A program made the position numbers and the translations under genes. From the NCBI GenBank assembly GCA_017503005.1, contig JAFVTW010000003.1:137807-174357 (forward strand): DNA of 36,551 bases, in the 5' to 3' direction. Below the pieces are notes generated by a model. The model had not been told where the DNA came from, did not search any database, and worked only from the letters and a program-made list of their open reading frames with translations. Each line of letters opens with the position of its first letter. Position 1 is the stretch's first letter. The DNA comes from Clostridia bacterium (lineage in GTDB: Bacteria; Bacillota; Clostridia; Christensenellales; UBA1242). Positions 31,264 to 36,551 of the stretch are shown here, one piece after another.

Positions 31264-33453
31264 ATGAAAAAGAAATTTTTAAGTTTTATTTTAGCATTAT
31301 GCTTAATTATTCCATGTTCATTTATATTAAGTGCTTGTGGTGAAGATGATGACCCACCAGCAGAACCAGTTCATCATGGTATAGCAATAAGAACCCTTAA
31401 TAATTTGAATGATAAGCTAGATTCTATTGAAATTTTTTGTGGTGATAGAGAAGCAGTGTCCGAAACAGAATTTTATAGCGGAACTATAAAGGAAGGAGAG
31501 GAGAATGTTTTTATTAAATTAAAAGCAAAGCAATCAGTAAAATATACTGAAGAAGATGTTATCCTTACTGAAAATGATAATAAAGAATTTTCAAAATCTA
31601 TTGAAATTAAAAATGATGGCATTACACAAAATATTATTGAAATAACCATTAGTAATATTAAAAATGATTGCTTCTTCAAGCTTGGTTTAGAAGATAGTGA
31701 CGAAATCCATCAAATAGCATCAATGCCTATTGAATTTAACTATGATATTCGTTACACCTCATCATCTAATGACCAGATTGTTTTAACTGGCTTAGAAGAG
31801 TCTTTTGATAGTATTTCTGTTTGGAGTGATAAGGCTAATCGCTTTATATCTTACAACGACACAAAAGCTGACAATACCTTAAGTACAGAACTAGAGTTGC
31901 AAAACATTAATGTAAATGAGTTTAAGGTGTATGTTCGTTTTGCAACAAACCTTATATTATTTAATTCAAAAACATTAAACAATTTGGTTGTTCTTCGTCA
32001 AGCAAATAGCAGCGAATTAGATGTTCCATTAACTTTTAATCCTCAGGCTGTTAAAAAAGATGGAGTTGAATGTTATGAGTATACACTTGATATTGATAAA
32101 TTTCAGCACAATATAACTGAAAATAGTAAAATAGTACTAACTTATCAAAATGATTTAGGAAGAATTTCTGGATTAACAGTACGAGAAATTGAAGATATGG
32201 CCGTGTTGGATTATGTAGAATTTGATGGTCATAAATTTAGCCAAACAACTTATAGAGATAATTTAACTGATAATAGAGAGATAGTTGCTACTATTGTTGA
32301 GCCATCAGCAAACTCTGTTAAAAAACTTAATGAAGCAGGTACTTACAAAATGATCGTTGGTGTAAATGGAAGTAGTGAGTATGTAGATTATAGTAAAATT
32401 GATGTGTATGTTGGAAACAAAGAATCAGGCATAAAAGCAGAGTATAAAGAAGATGGTTATCATTATGTAACAATCCCAGTCAATGCATACCCAAGCCAAT
32501 ATGGAAATGCTGAGTATTTCTATTTGACAGCTGTTCCAAATGTTCAAAATATAGATGATGTAATTGACACAGAAAATTATGCTGTGGTGCCAGTTACAAC
32601 TGTTGTTGAAAATGTAGCGATGTATAATGTAACTGAAAATGTGGGCGAACTTTGGAGAACAGAATTAAGTCAAGATGGCAAAACACAAACACAATATTTT
32701 GTTGTGGAAAAAAATGCGAAAGATTTATATTATAACTCAATATTACCATTAAATAAAAAATTCTATTATGCAAATTATGATGATATTACAGTAAAAGTAA
32801 CATTTAATGGTCATGTAAATTATATTAACTTTGATTTTAAAACAATATATAACAATAATCTTTCATTGGGTGGAACTCTCGACTTATTGTGCGACGACCA
32901 ATACTATTATATTCAAAACAACTACTATGTTTCTGGCGACACTTCTTATGTAGAATATAGTGTATCACAGGAAATTGTTGAGTTTAGACCTATTCGACTA
33001 TCTACAAACACTGCTTATGATGGTAATGGTATTAAATATGAAATCATATCTGGAACTGTAAGTAAATCAGCTCTTAAAGGTTATTCATATTATTATGATG
33101 GAAACAATGGCGGAACTGAAATCGAAGTTGCAACCAGCTTAGTAATAAAACATGGTAATGATGTTATAACACCTTCAAATGGGGTATACGAACTTGAAAG
33201 AGGTGTAATATATAATTTTGAATTAACAATACTAAATACACCAGATTTAGCTACACCTTCTTATATGTATGATCTTATTTGTAGTATTAGTGAGTGGACT
33301 GTTTATGAAGAAAACGGAGATAGTCATACAGAGACTAATGGAGAAATTACTTATAAAGAAATCAATGGTAAATTTATTGGAACAATTTGCATCAATACTC
33401 CATTTGATAGTTTTGGTTTAGTTGATTGTTTTACACTTGGTATTCGTTATTAG
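31264..33453 (+). CDS. Large lipoprotein of the array
   Basis: The 729-residue product starts with a lipoprotein signal peptide, MKKKFLSFILALCLIIPCSF, and a lipobox ILSAC, so Cys would be lipidated and the protein anchored outside the membrane. The rest is rich in beta-type sequence and Asn/Asp/Thr, suggesting repeated Ig-like domains, but no catalytic motif was seen. The signal peptide DNA is close to that of the lipoprotein genes at 33736 and 34627, while the mature part is three times as long and not visibly related. TAGGAG precedes the ATG. It shares the promoter of the 30748 gene. A terminator of the array type follows. Confidence 0.8.
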   Translation: MKKKFLSFILALCLIIPCSFILSACGEDDDPPAEPVHHGIAIRTLNNLNDKLDSIEIFCGDREAVSETEFYSGTIKEGEENVFIKLKAKQSVKYTEEDVILTENDNKEFSKSIEIKNDGITQNIIEITISNIKNDCFFKLGLEDSDEIHQIASMPIEFNYDIRYTSSSNDQIVLTGLEESFDSISVWSDKANRFISYNDTKADNTLSTELELQNINVNEFKVYVRFATNLILFNSKTLNNLVVLRQANSSELDVPLTFNPQAVKKDGVECYEYTLDIDKFQHNITENSKIVLTYQNDLGRISGLTVREIEDMAVLDYVEFDGHKFSQTTYRDNLTDNREIVATIVEPSANSVKKLNEAGTYKMIVGVNGSSEYVDYSKIDVYVGNKESGIKAEYKEDGYHYVTIPVNAYPSQYGNAEYFYLTAVPNVQNIDDVIDTENYAVVPVTTVVENVAMYNVTENVGELWRTELSQDGKTQTQYFVVEKNAKDLYYNSILPLNKKFYYANYDDITVKVTFNGHVNYINFDFKTIYNNNLSLGGTLDLLCDDQYYYIQNNYYVSGDTSYVEYSVSQEIVEFRPIRLSTNTAYDGNGIKYEIISGTVSKSALKGYSYYYDGNNGGTEIEVATSLVIKHGNDVITPSNGVYELERGVIYNFELTILNTPDLATPSYMYDLICSISEWTVYEENGDSHTETNGEITYKEINGKFIGTICINTPFDSFGLVDCFTLGIRY

Positions 33454-33472
33454 TATGAGTTTTTACTATATT

Positions 33473-33502
33473 AACCTATCAGAATTTTCTGGTAGGTTTT
33501 TT
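33473..33502 (+). terminator. Array terminator 1
   Basis: AACCTATCAG (33473-33482) pairs with CTGGTAGGTT (33489-33498), with a T-run. It is the same family as those at 34491, 35349 and 35987. Confidence 0.85.
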
Positions 33503-33514
33503 AGTTTAAATCTT

Positions 33515-33560
33515 AACTAAAAATAAAAAACAAATTCAAGCGAACTTGTTTTTATTACTG
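33515..33560. repeat. Spacer element copy 2
   Basis: AACTAAAAATAAAAAA, then CAAATTCAAG and CGAACTTG (a hairpin with one mismatch), then TTTTTATTACTG. It matches almost base for base the spacer between the two 141-base repeats at 36363-36412. Confidence 0.75.
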
Positions 33561-33576
33561 TCTTTATGTAACTAAG

Positions 33577-33624
33577 AGTTCATATAGCCACCGCTATTGT
33601 TTCCAAAAGTTTATATAGCCACCA
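33577..33624. repeat. Direct repeat in the lipoprotein spacer
   Basis: AGTTCATATAGCCACC (33577-33592) and AGTTTATATAGCCACC (33609-33624) differ at one base and start 32 bases apart. They lie between an array terminator and the next promoter and are not coding in any frame I could support. Confidence 0.75.
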
Positions 33625-33687
33625 CCTAAATAAAGTCGATTTTTTCAAAATATTTAGTTTTTTATTAGCACTATTTCAAATGATTTG

Positions 33688-33696
33688 TGCTATACT
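33688..33696 (+). promoter_or_regulatory. Extended -10 promoter of lipoprotein 2
   Basis: TGCTATACT. The next bases (AAAAATATCAA) are identical to those after the promoter at 34578. Confidence 0.7.
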
Positions 33697-33735
33697 AAAA
33701 ATATCAAATACAATAAATATGTATTAGGAGGTTTT

Positions 33736-34479
33736 ATGAAAAAGAAATTTTTAAGTTTTATTTTAGCAATATGCTTAATTATTCCTTGTATGTTTATGAT
33801 GACTGCTTGTGGAAAGGACGAGCCTAAGTCACTAGCTGGCAAGACTATTCGCTGTTCTGACTTTTATACAGAAATTTTTAACAGTCATTCAATTGACCTA
33901 AATTATGTTCAAGAGGGTAACAATGGCAATAAATTCTATACTACAAATGTCACTCTTGGTGAAATATTGGAGATGACTCTAGGAACTAATGCCTTCACTT
34001 ACCTAAACAATGTAACACCTACTACAATTGATGAGGCAAAAGAATTATTCGCTCAAAAACTAAAAAGCGAGCTTTGCACAATATCTGTAAATCCTTATAT
34101 TCACTTTTCAGAAGATTTAACCAAAGCTGAGTTGTATTATACTGCCGACACAGTTGCAAGGACTTATGATGTTGAATATGTAAGCAACTTGGGGTATGGA
34201 ACATACACATTAAAACTAGATGGTAAAGATTGTGTTGAGCTTTATGCACTTGATAGCGACCATGACAAATTCCGTATTGCTGAAATCGGTATAGACGGCT
34301 ACACGGGTGTTGAGGGCTACCACTTTCTAAAAGAAGCTTGTGAGATTGGATTAGAAGGTGAATGTGCTACACCAATTACTCTGACTGCAGATGACGGCTC
34401 TACAATACAAAAAAGACTTGATGAAGTTTTTGTTAATAACATAACAATTCTGGCTACACTACTATACACAGTTATATAA
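33736..34479 (+). CDS. Lipoprotein 2 of the array
   Basis: The ATG at 33736 follows TTAGGAGG; an in-frame start at 33685 lies in the promoter and is rejected. The 247-residue product has a lipoprotein signal peptide (MKKKFLSFILAICLIIPCMF, then MMTACG). The mature part opens SLAGKTIRCSDFY and contains TIDEAKELFAQKLKSE and ARTYDVEYVSNLGYGTYTL. These segments line up with the neighbouring lipoprotein 3 (LSGKTIAIN, SIDELKTKL, VKTYDVEFFKLG), so the two are paralogues that have diverged strongly. No catalytic motif is seen. It is probably an extracellular binding or immunity-type lipoprotein, but the function is unknown. Confidence 0.8.
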   Translation: MKKKFLSFILAICLIIPCMFMMTACGKDEPKSLAGKTIRCSDFYTEIFNSHSIDLNYVQEGNNGNKFYTTNVTLGEILEMTLGTNAFTYLNNVTPTTIDEAKELFAQKLKSELCTISVNPYIHFSEDLTKAELYYTADTVARTYDVEYVSNLGYGTYTLKLDGKDCVELYALDSDHDKFRIAEIGIDGYTGVEGYHFLKEACEIGLEGECATPITLTADDGSTIQKRLDEVFVNNITILATLLYTVI

Positions 34480-34490
34480 TAAATAATTAA

Positions 34491-34521
34491 AAACCTATTA
34501 GAGAAATCTAGTAGGTTTTTT
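34491..34521 (+). terminator. Array terminator 2
   Basis: CCTATTAG (34494-34501) pairs with CTAGTAGG (34508-34515) with one G-T pair, then T. Stem, loop (AGAAAT) and T-run are identical to array terminator 4 at 35987. Confidence 0.85.
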
Positions 34522-34577
34522 CTTTAATAAGATTTTTTGAAAAAATGTAAAAAAATGAAACATTTTTAAAATGTTTG

Positions 34578-34586
34578 TGCTATACT
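34578..34586 (+). promoter_or_regulatory. Extended -10 promoter of lipoprotein 3
   Basis: TGCTATACT, 40 bases before the start codon, identical to the promoter of lipoprotein 2 including its flanks. Confidence 0.7.
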
Positions 34587-34626
34587 AAAAATATCAATAA
34601 AATATTTGTGGAAATTAGGAGGTTTT

Positions 34627-35343
34627 ATGAAAAAGAAATTATTAAGTGTTATTTTAGCAATATGCTTAATTATTCCTTGTATGTTTATGATGACTGCATG
34701 TGGTAGTAAAACAGTTGATTTGTCAGGGAAAACCATTGCAATTAATGAGATAACAGACATGAATTGGGATGCAATTTCTTTATATGTTTCTTATCAGGAT
34801 AGTGAAGATAACAATAAGTCATATAATCTTGACATTACTAGCGATGATAATGCATTTGAAAATGCAGATGCTGTTAAGATAATGAAAAGTTTGGCTGGAG
34901 TGTCTGATAATGCAAGTATTGATGAATTAAAAACAAAACTTCAAACAGTAGTGTTTAACAACGCGAAAAATAAGAGTCATGTATTAAAGTTTAACGACAA
35001 TGCATCTAAGGTAAACTTTTACCAATACTCTGAAGGAAATCTTGATAATGTTGTAAAAACATATGATGTGGAGTTTTTTAAATTAGGTGACACTAACCAA
35101 TATTATTTAAGACAAAATGACGAAAGAACTGGGGATGTTTTGACGGTATATGCAAAAGACAATATAGGTGTTGGTGGAACAAATTTGATACCAATTATTG
35201 AATTTGATATAAGTTCTTTAAATATAGAAGTTACACTAACCCCTTTAAATGGCGTTGGCGAATCAAAAACAGTTTTATTAAGTGATTGTTCGTATGCTCG
35301 TTTATCATTTCATGTTGAATATACTTATAAAGTAGTTGAATAA
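34627..35343 (+). CDS. Lipoprotein 3 of the array
   Basis: The ATG at 34627 follows TTAGGAGG. The 238-residue product has nearly the same signal peptide as lipoprotein 2 (MKKKLLSVILAICLIIPCMF, MMTACG); over the first 77 bases of the two genes I count three differences. The mature part (LSGKTIAINEITDMNWD, then SIDELKTKLQTVVFNN and VVKTYDVEFFKLGDTNQYYL) aligns with lipoprotein 2 in order and spacing but at low identity. Extracellular, lipid-anchored, function unknown. It is transcribed alone between its own promoter and array terminator 3. Confidence 0.8.
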   Translation: MKKKLLSVILAICLIIPCMFMMTACGSKTVDLSGKTIAINEITDMNWDAISLYVSYQDSEDNNKSYNLDITSDDNAFENADAVKIMKSLAGVSDNASIDELKTKLQTVVFNNAKNKSHVLKFNDNASKVNFYQYSEGNLDNVVKTYDVEFFKLGDTNQYYLRQNDERTGDVLTVYAKDNIGVGGTNLIPIIEFDISSLNIEVTLTPLNGVGESKTVLLSDCSYARLSFHVEYTYKVVE

Positions 35344-35348
35344 AAAAT

Positions 35349-35380
35349 AAACCTATCAGTTAAAAACTGGTAGGTTTTTT
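35349..35380 (+). terminator. Array terminator 3
   Basis: AAACCTATCAGT pairs with ACTGGTAGGTTT (one G-T pair) and is followed by T. Confidence 0.85.
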
Positions 35381-35447
35381 GTTGGTTAAAAAATTTATTA
35401 TTTTTCTTAAAAACATTGAAAATAGTTATACAAATTTCTCAATAAAC

Positions 35448-35456
35448 TGCTATACT
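35448..35456 (+). promoter_or_regulatory. Extended -10 promoter of the second membrane protein
   Basis: TGCTATACT followed by TAAAGT, as at 30712. A weak TATACA lies 18 bases upstream of the -10 box. Confidence 0.65.
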
Positions 35457-35486
35457 TAAAGTAATATATTGTATGAGGAAAATTAT

Positions 35487-35975
35487 ATGAAAATATTATC
35501 TTGGATTTTTAGTTTTTTAAGTAGATATACGGAATTTGAAGAAAGTTATGAAAAAAGCCGTTATCCATTTTTTAGATTTGTGTTAATAGCTGGAACAGCA
35601 GCAGCTCCCATTTTGCTCTTTTGGGGTGCTTCTGCAATTGAAATAAATAGTTTTGGGGCAATTCTAGGATATTTATTAGTGTTAGTATTAGCTATTTTAC
35701 TTTTAATAAAAACTCCAAAAGATTTGTTTTTATTGTCGTTAGTTGCTATCAATCATGGAATTTGGATTTTAGCTGAAAGAAAAAAAGAAAAAACAACAAA
35801 TGAAGAAAATTTAGAAGCAATCAATCCTAAAAAGAAAAAAAGAGCTGTTAAATGGGAAAAAGTAAATTCTAGTCCTGTTTGGGATTTTCTTATAGGTATT
35901 TCAGGTATAATATTTGCTATTGCTTCAATTGCATTAGTGTTTGTATTTTTTGTTATACCTTTGTTTTTTAATTAG
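35487..35975 (+). CDS. Small membrane protein of the lipoprotein array (paralogue B)
   Basis: The ATG at 35487 follows TGAGGA. The 162 residues have an N-terminal amphipathic stretch (YTEFEESYEKSRYPFFRF), membrane helices at FVLIAGTAAAPILLFWGASA and LGYLLVLVLAILLLIKT, a very basic loop (INPKKKKRAVKWEK) and a last hydrophobic segment (ISGIIFAIASIALVFVFFVI). Size and arrangement match the protein at 30748, and the phrase 'TPKDLFLLSLVAINH' mirrors 'SPTELMITGIVALRH' there. Function unknown. It stands alone between its promoter and array terminator 4. Confidence 0.75.
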   Translation: MKILSWIFSFLSRYTEFEESYEKSRYPFFRFVLIAGTAAAPILLFWGASAIEINSFGAILGYLLVLVLAILLLIKTPKDLFLLSLVAINHGIWILAERKKEKTTNEENLEAINPKKKKRAVKWEKVNSSPVWDFLIGISGIIFAIASIALVFVFFVIPLFFN

Positions 35976-36019: not shown

Positions 36020-36238
36020 TTTTTAGTTCAAATTCCTCCTAGATATTTTTACAACGAAGTGGTGGCAAGAGTGTGTGTCTTGCAATGTTAATTTTGTGTA
36101 GAGACATTTGTTTTTAGTGCTATTGTCAAGGCAAAGAAAAACCACAAACCCTTAAATATGCCTATTATCCTAAAGGTTTGGGGAATAAAAAAGTGTTCAA
36201 ACTGAACTCTATAAAAGAGACATTTTTGAACACTATGT
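36020..36238. other. Non-coding stretch with three successive inverted repeats
   Basis: No supportable gene. It holds GCAAGA/TCTTGC (36065-36070 with 36078-36083), CAAACC+TTA paired with TAA+GGTTTG (36145-36154 with 36171-36180) and a perfect 10-bp AGTGTTCAAA/TTTGAACACT (36192-36201 with 36225-36234). The last one ends five bases before the first 141-base repeat. Confidence 0.65.
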
Positions 36239-36379
36239 TGGCGCAGCAGGAGGGGCGATGTGTATAGAAAAGTTGCCTGTGGCAAGTTTTTAACCAAAGC
36301 CGGGAGCAACTTGTTTGCGGTCTGGCTCCGACAGGAGTTGATACCCGTAGGGTTCAAATCCCGACTAAAAATAAAAAAA
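36239..36379. repeat. 141-base GC-rich structured repeat, copy 1
   Basis: It begins TGGCGCAGCAGGAGGGGCGA and ends CCGACTAAAAATAAAAAAA. The first 127 bases contain 68 G or C (54 percent), far above the flanks. It includes a tRNA T-arm-like hairpin, GGG-TTCAAAT-CCC (36350-36362), a closing pair GCCGGGA (36299-36305) with TCCCGAC (36359-36365, one mismatch), TTGCC/GGCAA (36273-36285) and GGAGC/GCTCC (36303-36307 with 36325-36329). Not all can form together. The strand is not settled. Confidence 0.9.
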
Positions 36380-36412
36380 ACAAATTCAATAAGAACTTGC
36401 TTTGTATTACTG
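36363..36412. repeat. Spacer element copy 3, between the two 141-base repeats
   Basis: The 31 unique bases 36380-36410 plus shared edges. CAAATTC and GAACTTG form an imperfect hairpin, followed by CTTTGTATTACTG. It is nearly identical to 33515-33560. Confidence 0.75.
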
Positions 36413-36551
36413 GCGCAGCAGGAGGGGCGACGTGTATAGAAAAGTTGCCTGTGGCAAGTTTTTAACCAAAGCCGGGAGCAACTTGTTTGCGGTCTGGCTC
36501 CGACAGGAGTTGATACCCGTAGGGTTCAAATCCCGACTAAAAATAAAAAAA
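36411..36551. repeat. 141-base GC-rich structured repeat, copy 2, at the window end
   Basis: Identical to copy 1 except for one base (T at 36259, C at 36431). The copy-to-copy period is 172 bases. The window stops within its A-rich tail, so more copies may follow. Confidence 0.9.

What the first reader, a model, noticed from the sequence alone, without database searches (positions are those of the whole stretch)
36239..36551. Tandem array of a GC-rich, structured 141-base element with a tRNA-T-arm-like hairpin
Two copies with one difference, spaced 172 bases apart, in otherwise AT-rich DNA; the core is 54 percent G+C. A GGG-TTCAAAT-CCC hairpin has the exact seven-base loop of a tRNA T-arm, but no complete cloverleaf can be drawn because the T-arm 3' strand is also needed for the closing stem. 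The near-perfect identity implies recent spread or homogenisation. It could be a tandem non-coding RNA, a tRNA-mimicking mobile repeat or a recombination substrate. The window ends inside the array.
Basis: partly seen in the sequence, partly recalled or inferred. Interest (0 to 1): 0.75.

Follow-up and report, generated by a model that had tools for sequence, protein, structure and literature searches.

The report
Tiny mobile element invading tRNA genes
The repeated 172-base unit is a very small, non-coding mobile element that inserts at particular spots inside tRNA genes of uncultured bacteria and carries a hairpin that copies part of the tRNA it sits in, an arrangement that I did not find described in the papers I searched.

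Summary
The repeat is real (one difference in 141 shared bases; period 172) and lies at the end of its contig; another contig starts inside a third copy and runs into an intact tRNA-Ser(GGA). Each unit is [tRNA-Ser 3' end + terminator] + [~110-base structured element]. A covariance model of the core finds it in 64 of 118 genomes of the host's family, 70 of 200 of its order (Christensenellales, inferred from record titles), but 2 of 298 others of the phylum. Of 62 insertions that could be placed, 54 lie exactly behind a GG: D-loop (sense), T-arm or anticodon arm (antisense). In the clearest single-copy cases 49-77 bases of target are duplicated. Related genomes show empty, single and multiple sites. 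The stems covary but lack the G-U excess of tRNA stems, which points to folded DNA. No Rfam family fits; reverse transcriptase, Y1 and IS110 genes do not follow the element; the enzyme is unknown. Best reading: a REP/MITE-like non-autonomous element specialised on tRNA genes, possibly guided by its hairpin.

The parts
36187..36235 (-). terminator-like hairpin plus T run behind the outermost (displaced) tRNA-Ser 3' fragment; probably the tRNA's original downstream sequence
   Evidence: sequence; on the minus strand AGTGTTCAAA...TTTGAACACTTTTTT follows the tRNA 3' fragment. That it is the original terminator is inferred
36239..36254 (-). copy 1 of the tRNA-Ser(GGA) 3' end (antisense), ending in GGG at the insertion point
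   Evidence: identical to the 3' end of the intact tRNA-Ser on contig C23:163-250
36252..36336 (+). conserved core of the element, copy 1 (model match; its first three bases overlap the tRNA GGG)
   Evidence: 106.9 bits with R1, 104.0 bits with R2; C5:174058-174142
36268..36290 (+). stem P1 (AAAAGTTGCC-TGT-GGCAAGTTTT with a central G.G mismatch)
   Evidence: helix 1: 98.4% of cells paired, 5 of 9 pairs with changes on both sides
36306..36318 (+). stem P2 (GCAA...TTGC)
   Evidence: helix 3: 5 of 5 pairs with changes on both sides, 87.6% of cells paired
36326..36337 (+). short hairpin CTCC-GACA-GGAG
   Evidence: helix 4, one of 3 pairs with changes on both sides; weak
36338..36346 (+). inner strand of the target hairpin (TTGATACCC), resembling the target just beyond the insertion point (TTGAACCC)
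   Evidence: sequence; fold
36350..36362 (+). outer 'guide' strand GGGTTCAAATCCC, reverse complement of the target GGG|ATTTGAACCC of tRNA-Ser across the insertion point
   Evidence: sequence against tRNA-Ser on C23; general rule
36363..36426 (-). duplicated target stretch: terminator region of tRNA-Ser (36371-36403) and tRNA-Ser 3' end copy 2 (36411-36426)
   Evidence: the same stretch follows the intact tRNA-Ser on C23 with few changes
36424..36508 (+). conserved core, copy 2
   Evidence: 108.7 bits with R1; C5:174230-174314
36522..36534 (+). guide strand, copy 2
   Evidence: sequence
36535..36551 (-). start of the next duplicated target stretch, cut by the contig end; the array probably goes on in contig C23 (third copy, then tRNA-Ser)
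   Evidence: adjacency of C5 and C23 is inferred

Best explanation
A non-autonomous, non-coding mobile element of about 110 bases that inserts into tRNA genes. It is kin to dispersed palindromic (MITE/REP-like) repeats of the same order but specialised on tRNA genes. Shown by comparison: (1) the same core sits at many different tRNA genes; (2) it lies directly behind a GG at a few preferred places, the D-loop (sense) and the T-arm and anticodon arm (antisense); (3) a stretch of target, 49-77 bases in the clearest single-copy cases, including the tRNA 3' end and terminator or the tRNA 5' end and its upstream side, is duplicated, so an intact tRNA is kept; (4) the element ends in a hairpin whose outer strand is the reverse complement of its own target across the insertion point; (5) sites are empty, single or multiple in relatives. 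Inferred: a folded single strand of DNA is what moves; the hairpin strand pairs with the target and positions the insertion; an enzyme acting in trans cuts the two target strands some 50-80 bases apart, and filling in gives the duplication. Tandem arrays then arise by repeated insertion at the restored target or by recombination between duplicated stretches. That it is a mobile tRNA-targeted element I hold at about 0.85; the guided single-strand mechanism at about 0.35.
For: tRNA linkage: 82 of 137 unique elements have an ARAGORN tRNA within 130 bases and 101 of 137 within 420; in the own genome a random element would lie within 100 bases of one of 33 tRNA genes about 1% of the time. Preferred site: of 62 placed insertions, 31 T-arm antisense, 19 D-arm sense, 7 anticodon-arm antisense, 5 anticodon 3' side sense; GG exactly before the site in 54 of 62, within 2 bases in 5 more. 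Duplications: 77 bases 100% identical (L011), 74 at 99% (L009), 52 at 100% (L018), 49 at 98% (L034). Guide strand: mean match to own target 8.89 against 5.49 (sd 0.22) for permuted targets, 0 of 2000; within T-arm insertions 12.0 against 8.2, 0 of 5000, own target joint best for 14 of 18. Polymorphism: tRNA-Ser(GGA) empty in G001 and G002, one copy in G003, three seen here; tRNA-Leu(CAA) empty in G137, one copy in G021, two in G079. Structure: 11 of 19 pairs with changes on both sides, reached by 0 of 500 shuffles. DNA rather than RNA: P1 has 9 G-T and 13 A-C pairs in 85 distinct arm pairs, tRNA stems from the same loci 82 and 6; Fisher P = 3e-7. Dispersed kin.
Against: No mobilising enzyme was found: Y1 transposases, reverse transcriptases and IS110 transposases do not follow the element, and no element with an evident gene of its own was recognised (ORFs were listed at a few loci only). 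No movement was observed. The guide match is weak for D-loop insertions (6.8 against 5.9, reached by 50 of 5000 permutations) and the two anticodon classes have too few distinct targets to test alone (827 of 5000 each). Over all classes the own target is joint best for only 24 of 35. The hairpin strand could be a by-product, copied from the target at insertion, rather than a guide. 75 of 137 elements were not placed (55 without a tRNA within 130 bases, 17 with the tRNA on the other side, 3 with weak flanks); the 17 include tRNA-Ser(GCT) copies with a different order. Three of 62 sites have no GG at the aligned place. Aligned duplications over the 62 range from 14 to 153 bases, so 50-80 is my reading of the clean cases. 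Elements are related by descent, so permutation counts overstate independence.
Confidence: 0.55

Rival explanations
1. A structured non-coding RNA made from the tRNA loci (for example antisense to the tRNA, or a regulator), duplicated in tandem; position next to tRNAs reflects function.
For: Conserved core with strong covariation; four single sequences fold more stably than shuffles, z -1.8 to -4.1.
Against: Orthologous tRNAs lack it in the same genus; it is inserted in opposite orientations relative to tRNAs; it also occurs away from tRNA genes and inside an open reading frame in G030; no G-U excess in the stems while tRNA stems show it.
Confidence: 0.12
2. An attachment-site remnant or mini-element of a tyrosine-integrase island: tRNA 3' ends duplicated as attL/attR, unit excised and re-inserted as a circle by an integrase in trans.
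For: tRNA 3' end duplicated and displaced, tandem arrays, cargo-like 1.1 kb stretch with a 255-aa ORF between two units in L039.
Against: Also enters the D-loop with duplication of the tRNA 5' side; duplicated stretches are locus-specific up to terminator or upstream side rather than a common att core; a target-matching hairpin is not known to me in such systems. Integrases (PF00589) were not searched for.
Confidence: 0.13
3. A retroelement-like insertion: an RNA of the element, its 3' strand paired to the target, is reverse transcribed from a nick (target-primed), giving the long duplication.
For: Long duplication with the element joined at one preferred end (GG) and a target-complementary strand at the other; the geometry fits target priming.
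Against: Reverse transcriptases occur in 28 of 118 family genomes and not more in carriers (16 of 28 carry the element against 48 of 90 without RT; Fisher P 0.83); the same-genus carriers G002 and G003 have no RT match; no core lies near the 7 RT loci tested; pair types in the stems speak against RNA.
Confidence: 0.12
4. A bridge-RNA element of the IS110 kind without its transposase.
For: A structured element with a target-matching loop; the own genome has one IS110-type gene at C5:795-1256.
Against: IS110 transposases in 2 of 118 family genomes while the element is in 64; long duplications.
Confidence: 0.03

Closest known systems
REP elements (GTAG/CGTC-tagged palindromic repeats) with RAYT (Y1) transposases
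   Same: Short non-coding palindromic repeats, many copies, between or inside genes; GTAG REPs are hypothesised to be moved by RAYTs, and CGTC REPs lack a dedicated transposase (abstract of PMC3733652).
   Different: REPs are 20-40 bp (same abstract); this is about 110 bases with two well-supported stems, aimed at fixed sites of tRNA genes, with long duplications and a hairpin copying the target; no association with Y1 genes.
IS200/IS605 single-strand transposons
   Same: Folded single-strand ends and target choice by base pairing with a guide sequence (recalled from work on IS608, not from a call); proposed here by analogy.
   Different: That family makes no larger target duplications (passage of PMC2817692) and its guide is a few bases beside a hairpin (recalled); here matches of about 10-17 bases in the T-arm and anticodon classes.
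[quoted passage not shown]
   Same: Small, non-autonomous, palindromic ends, many copies in some genomes; the dispersed relatives in G030, G224 and G247 look like this.
   Different: No fixed terminal inverted repeats in the tRNA form; duplication far longer than the few bases usual for MITEs (recalled).
tRNA-integrating islands and integrative elements
   Same: tRNA 3' end duplicated, an intact tRNA kept.
   Different: About 110 bases, no gene recognised, three tRNA arms, both orientations, target-matching hairpin.
Integron attC sites
   Same: Function as folded single strands, structure kept while sequence drifts (recalled).
   Different: No gene cassettes or integron integrase were looked for; attC core motifs were not tested here.

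Membership tests
tRNA / tmRNA (RF00005 and ARAGORN) | complete cloverleaf or tmRNA fold | tested here: not met
   no match in the window
Known Rfam families | score over gathering threshold of any of 4227 families | tested here: not met
   none in the window; over 8 carrier loci only tRNA genes exceed their threshold
REP/RAYT system | Y1 (PF01797) transposase in carriers | tested here: not met
   21 of 118 genomes have a Y1 match; 10 of these 21 and 54 of the other 97 carry the element; no match in the own genome
REP/RAYT system | short palindrome with an unpaired GTAG or CGTC tag at one end | tested here: inconclusive
   GACG/CGTC lies beside stem P1 and GTAG/GTGG at the guide loop in some copies, by eye only; of the paper only outline and abstract were read
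IS200/IS605 | no larger target duplication | tested here: not met
   duplications of 48-77 bases at 98-100% in separable cases
IS110 bridge RNA | IS110 transposase (PF01548) in carriers | tested here: not met
   2 of 118 genomes
Retroelement / group II intron / retron | reverse transcriptase (PF00078) in carriers | tested here: not met
   16 of 28 RT genomes against 48 of 90 others carry it
MITE | small, non-coding, at unrelated sites with empty counterparts | tested here: met
MITE | terminal inverted repeats shared with a full transposon | tested here: inconclusive
   dispersed relatives have palindromic ends; no full-length partner found; near-complete DUF559 matches occur in 5 genomes, all carriers (P 0.06), without a core near the 5 loci tested
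Integrative element of tyrosine-integrase type | integrase gene and common att core | not tested
   PF00589 not searched; att core judged by eye only

The most novel reading that the evidence does not exclude
A nucleic-acid-guided mobile element: a strand of about 110 bases carrying its own 10-17 base address as one arm of a hairpin, which pairs with a tRNA gene and directs insertion behind a GG, with strand cuts 50-80 bases apart by an unknown enzyme. Each insertion may rewrite the address to the new target and rebuilds an intact tRNA, so the site can be hit again.
Probability: 0.3. Interest if true: 0.9.

Novelty: new variant of a known kind. Interest (0 to 1): 0.72.

Why it matters
If right, this is a widespread class of minimal mobile DNA (64 of 118 genomes of one bacterial family) that may read its target by base pairing and uses tRNA genes as safe harbours. 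It would make target choice by palindromic repeats testable, points to an unknown enzyme, and may help explain contig ends at tRNA genes: several arrays here, the window's included, stop at a contig end. It would add to the few natural systems in which nucleic acid pairing sets the insertion site.

Tried and rejected
Known RNA: Rfam at gathering and at E-value threshold, ARAGORN: nothing for the unit. Reverse transcriptase, Y1, IS110 and DUF559 as partner: no general association; DUF559 remains open for the dispersed form (G030 has seven matches, six near-complete; most of the 37 genomes with a match have only partial matches, many in proteins over 800 aa). Phage and plasmid records: no BLAST match to the unit. 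Viral contigs: 0, 0 and 2 pattern matches; the pattern had a wrong spacer length, so their zeros mean nothing; the corrected local check is, and one search used a looser pattern. The first consensus structure by RNAalifold (model R1) differed from the stems seen by eye and was replaced by a structure set by hand on the same alignment. Group I/II intron and ribozyme readings were considered from memory and dropped; apart from the Rfam searches they were not tested. A composite unit with a 255-aa ORF (L039) was looked at as a possible autonomous form; the ORF begins like a lipoprotein (by eye) and was not searched in a family library. Literature: 7 searches ran; among the titles and abstract starts listed (20 of 770 papers, 20 of 22) I recognised none describing these elements; the library is open-access only. 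Papers seen: PMC3733652 outline and abstract; PMC2817692 passages; the others as search listings only.

Full report
Observation. The two units at 36239-36410 and 36411-36551 differ at one of 141 bases, 36259. They are richer in G+C (unit 44%, 36251-36335 52%) than the window (32%). The window is G000:C5:137807-174357 and ends where contig C5 ends. Contig C23 starts inside a third copy (98% over query bases 49-227) that runs into an intact tRNA-Ser(GGA) on its minus strand, C23:163-250. That C5 and C23 are neighbours is likely but not proven, since the break falls in the repeat.

Anatomy. Read on the + strand, a unit is: 16 bases of antisense tRNA-Ser 3' end ending in GGG; an 85-base core that starts on that GGG; a short hairpin strand TTGATACCC, loop GTA, and outer strand GGGTTCAAATCCC; then the tRNA terminator region and the next antisense tRNA 3' end. 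It is the reverse complement of GGGATTTGAACCC, the sequence of tRNA-Ser across the insertion point GGG|ATTTGAACCC. The model finds six cores in the genome: three in this array, one behind tRNA-Leu(TAA) on C15, one behind tRNA-Ser(CGA) on C5, and one with a tRNA 3' fragment, but no ARAGORN tRNA, at the end of C20. In the Leu copy the outer strand is GGACTTAAAATC, most of the anticodon arm of tRNA-Leu(TAA), because there the insertion is in the anticodon arm.

Distribution. BLAST of the unit has a match in 21 of 59 genomes, the own included; some of these matches cover only the terminator side of the unit. A covariance model of the core (R1) finds it in 64 of 118 genomes of the family, the own included. 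Model R2 finds it in 70 of 200 genomes of the order, 8 of them of the own family, and in 2 of 298 other genomes drawn from the phylum (E 5e-7 and 6e-4). These large searches use strict filters and lose weak matches (note). Record titles name uncultured Clostridia and Christensenella (one as Christensenella sp. UBA1242); I infer the order Christensenellales from these titles and the kinship labels.

Targets. From the loci searched unique elements were kept of 147 matches. 82 have a tRNA gene within 130 bases, 101 within 420. In the own genome the chance for a random element to fall within 100 bases of one of 33 tRNA genes is about 1%. For 62 of the 137 the insertion point could be placed: 31 T-arm antisense, 19 D-arm sense, 7 anticodon-arm antisense, 5 anticodon 3' side sense. 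Not placed: 55 without a tRNA within 130 bases, 17 with the tRNA upstream on the element strand, 3 with weak flanks. Among the 17 are tRNA-Ser(GCT) loci in which the complete tRNA lies on the other side. The two bases just before the insertion are GG in 54 of 62, GG lies within 2 bases in 5, and 3 have none. The aligner was given the first three bases of the element, which begins with GG, so GG counts only because the target has it there too; the exact cut cannot be placed within these two bases. D-loop insertions in tRNA-Ala, Lys and Pro and a T-arm insertion in tRNA-Ser were also seen by eye in other families of the order.

Duplication. In single-copy cases the stretch between element and tRNA repeats the flank on the other side: 77 bases at 100% (L011), 74 at 99% (L009), 52 at 100% (L018), 49 at 98% (L034), 77 at 99% (L037, a weak model match). 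Over all 62 the aligned lengths run from 14 to 153; I read long values as tandem copies and short ones as diverged copies, without testing each. The duplicated stretch is that of the locus itself, with its own terminator or upstream side.

Target-matching strand. Scoring each element tail against the reverse complement of its own target gives a mean of 8.89; permuted targets give 5.49 (sd 0.22; 0 of 2000), letter-shuffled targets 4.71. Restricted to 39 elements whose tail could be separated from the duplication, one per distinct target: all classes 10.5 against 6.1 (n 35; 0 of 5000; own target joint best in 24 of 35); T-arm 12.0 against 8.2 for other T-arm targets (n 18; 0 of 5000; 14 of 18), so the match extends into stem bases that differ between tRNAs; D-loop 6.8 against 5.9 (n 11; 50 of 5000; 6 of 11); the two anticodon classes have 3 distinct targets each and cannot be tested alone (827 of 5000 each). 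Elements are related, so these counts are not independent.

Empty sites. tRNA-Ser(GGA) has no element in G001 (where a Met-Glu-Met tRNA cluster is near, as on C23) and in G002 (orthology less sure, since there the match next to the tRNA covers only the tRNA), one in G003, three seen here. tRNA-Leu(CAA) has none in G137, one in G021 and two in G079, all of one genus; G100 of that genus could not be judged. In G137 the bases at the site are AAG and not GGG; one case, no weight. I read this as insertion polymorphism inside genera.

DNA or RNA. With the structure set by hand, 92.6% of cells pair and 11 of 19 pairs have changes on both sides; none of 500 shuffles reaches the observed value on any of the five measures, and slid versions fall to 29-53% paired. 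The structure was chosen from these sequences, which favours it over the slid versions. P1 over all fetched elements: 85 distinct arm pairs, 695 Watson-Crick, 9 G-T, 13 A-C, 48 other; tRNA acceptor and T stems from the same loci: 1130 Watson-Crick, 82 G-T, 6 A-C, 6 other. The G-T to A-C ratio differs with Fisher P = 3e-7. P2 in the family set has 297, 3, 3 and 17. RNA helices tolerate G-U; this one does not prefer it over A-C, so I read the stem as kept at the DNA level. The register was chosen for most Watson-Crick pairs, which lowers both kinds alike; the elements are related, so the P value is only a guide.

Dispersed kin. In G030 the same core sits in palindromic repeats with ends AATTCCCCTC...GGGGTGTG, mostly with no tRNA in the fetched locus (one of the four loci aligned has a tRNA-Pro 182 bases away); one copy is inside a long open reading frame that I take for a P-type ATPase by its sequence (recalled; no family search). 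G224 and G247 (21 and 20 matches) have dispersed forms, none with a tRNA in the 7 and 11 loci displayed. In the forms looked at, the core follows GG in the 5' arm of an outer inverted repeat; in the tRNA form the target itself is that arm and the outer strand its partner (by eye). In G002 the core alone is repeated with a period of 100 bases.

Enzyme. Per-genome presence does not follow reverse transcriptases (element in 16 of 28 with, 48 of 90 without), Y1 (10 of 21, 54 of 97) or IS110 (present in 2 of 118). Near-complete DUF559 genes occur in 5 genomes, all carriers (P 0.06), with no core near the 5 loci tested. Tyrosine integrases were not searched.

Conclusion. The finding is a genuine, unusual mobile element at tRNA genes. 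Spread, target positions, duplication and target-matching hairpin are shown by comparison; single-strand movement, guiding and the offset cuts are inferred. It works like a REP/MITE-type element and resembles IS200/IS605 in the proposed use of pairing for target choice (recalled), but it did not meet their tests on enzyme and duplication, so I do not file it under them.

Noticed in passing
L075:88-2595 (G030:C1): A dispersed copy of the core lies in frame inside an 835-aa open reading frame that looks like a P-type ATPase; a second copy is in L075 and a similar one in L079.
   Followed up: partly
L039:1526-2750 (DBWI01000002.1): Two units flank 1.1 kb with a 255-aa lipoprotein-like ORF, between truncated tRNA-Ser 3' ends: a possible cargo caught between units.
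   Followed up: partly
L098:1-303 (G002:C7): Pure tandem of the 100-base core without target duplication at a contig end, which hints at rolling-circle or slippage amplification.
   Followed up: no
L020, L038, L043, L103, L127, L133 (tRNA-Ser GCT): A third arrangement at tRNA-Ser(GCT): element antisense and upstream of the tRNA; in L020 it runs into the tRNA 5' half without a target hairpin.
   Followed up: partly
L280:1421-1465 (IMG/VR contig): A dispersed form of the core sits between open reading frames of a phage-like contig.
   Followed up: no
window 31264-35975: A run of lipoprotein- or membrane-like ORFs without Pfam match (4 of 4 scanned); AAACCTATTAGAGAAATCTAGTAGGTTTTTT terminator-like repeats lie near some of them.
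   Followed up: partly
G000:C5:795-1256: The own genome has an IS110-type gene; only one other of 118 family genomes has a match.
   Followed up: no
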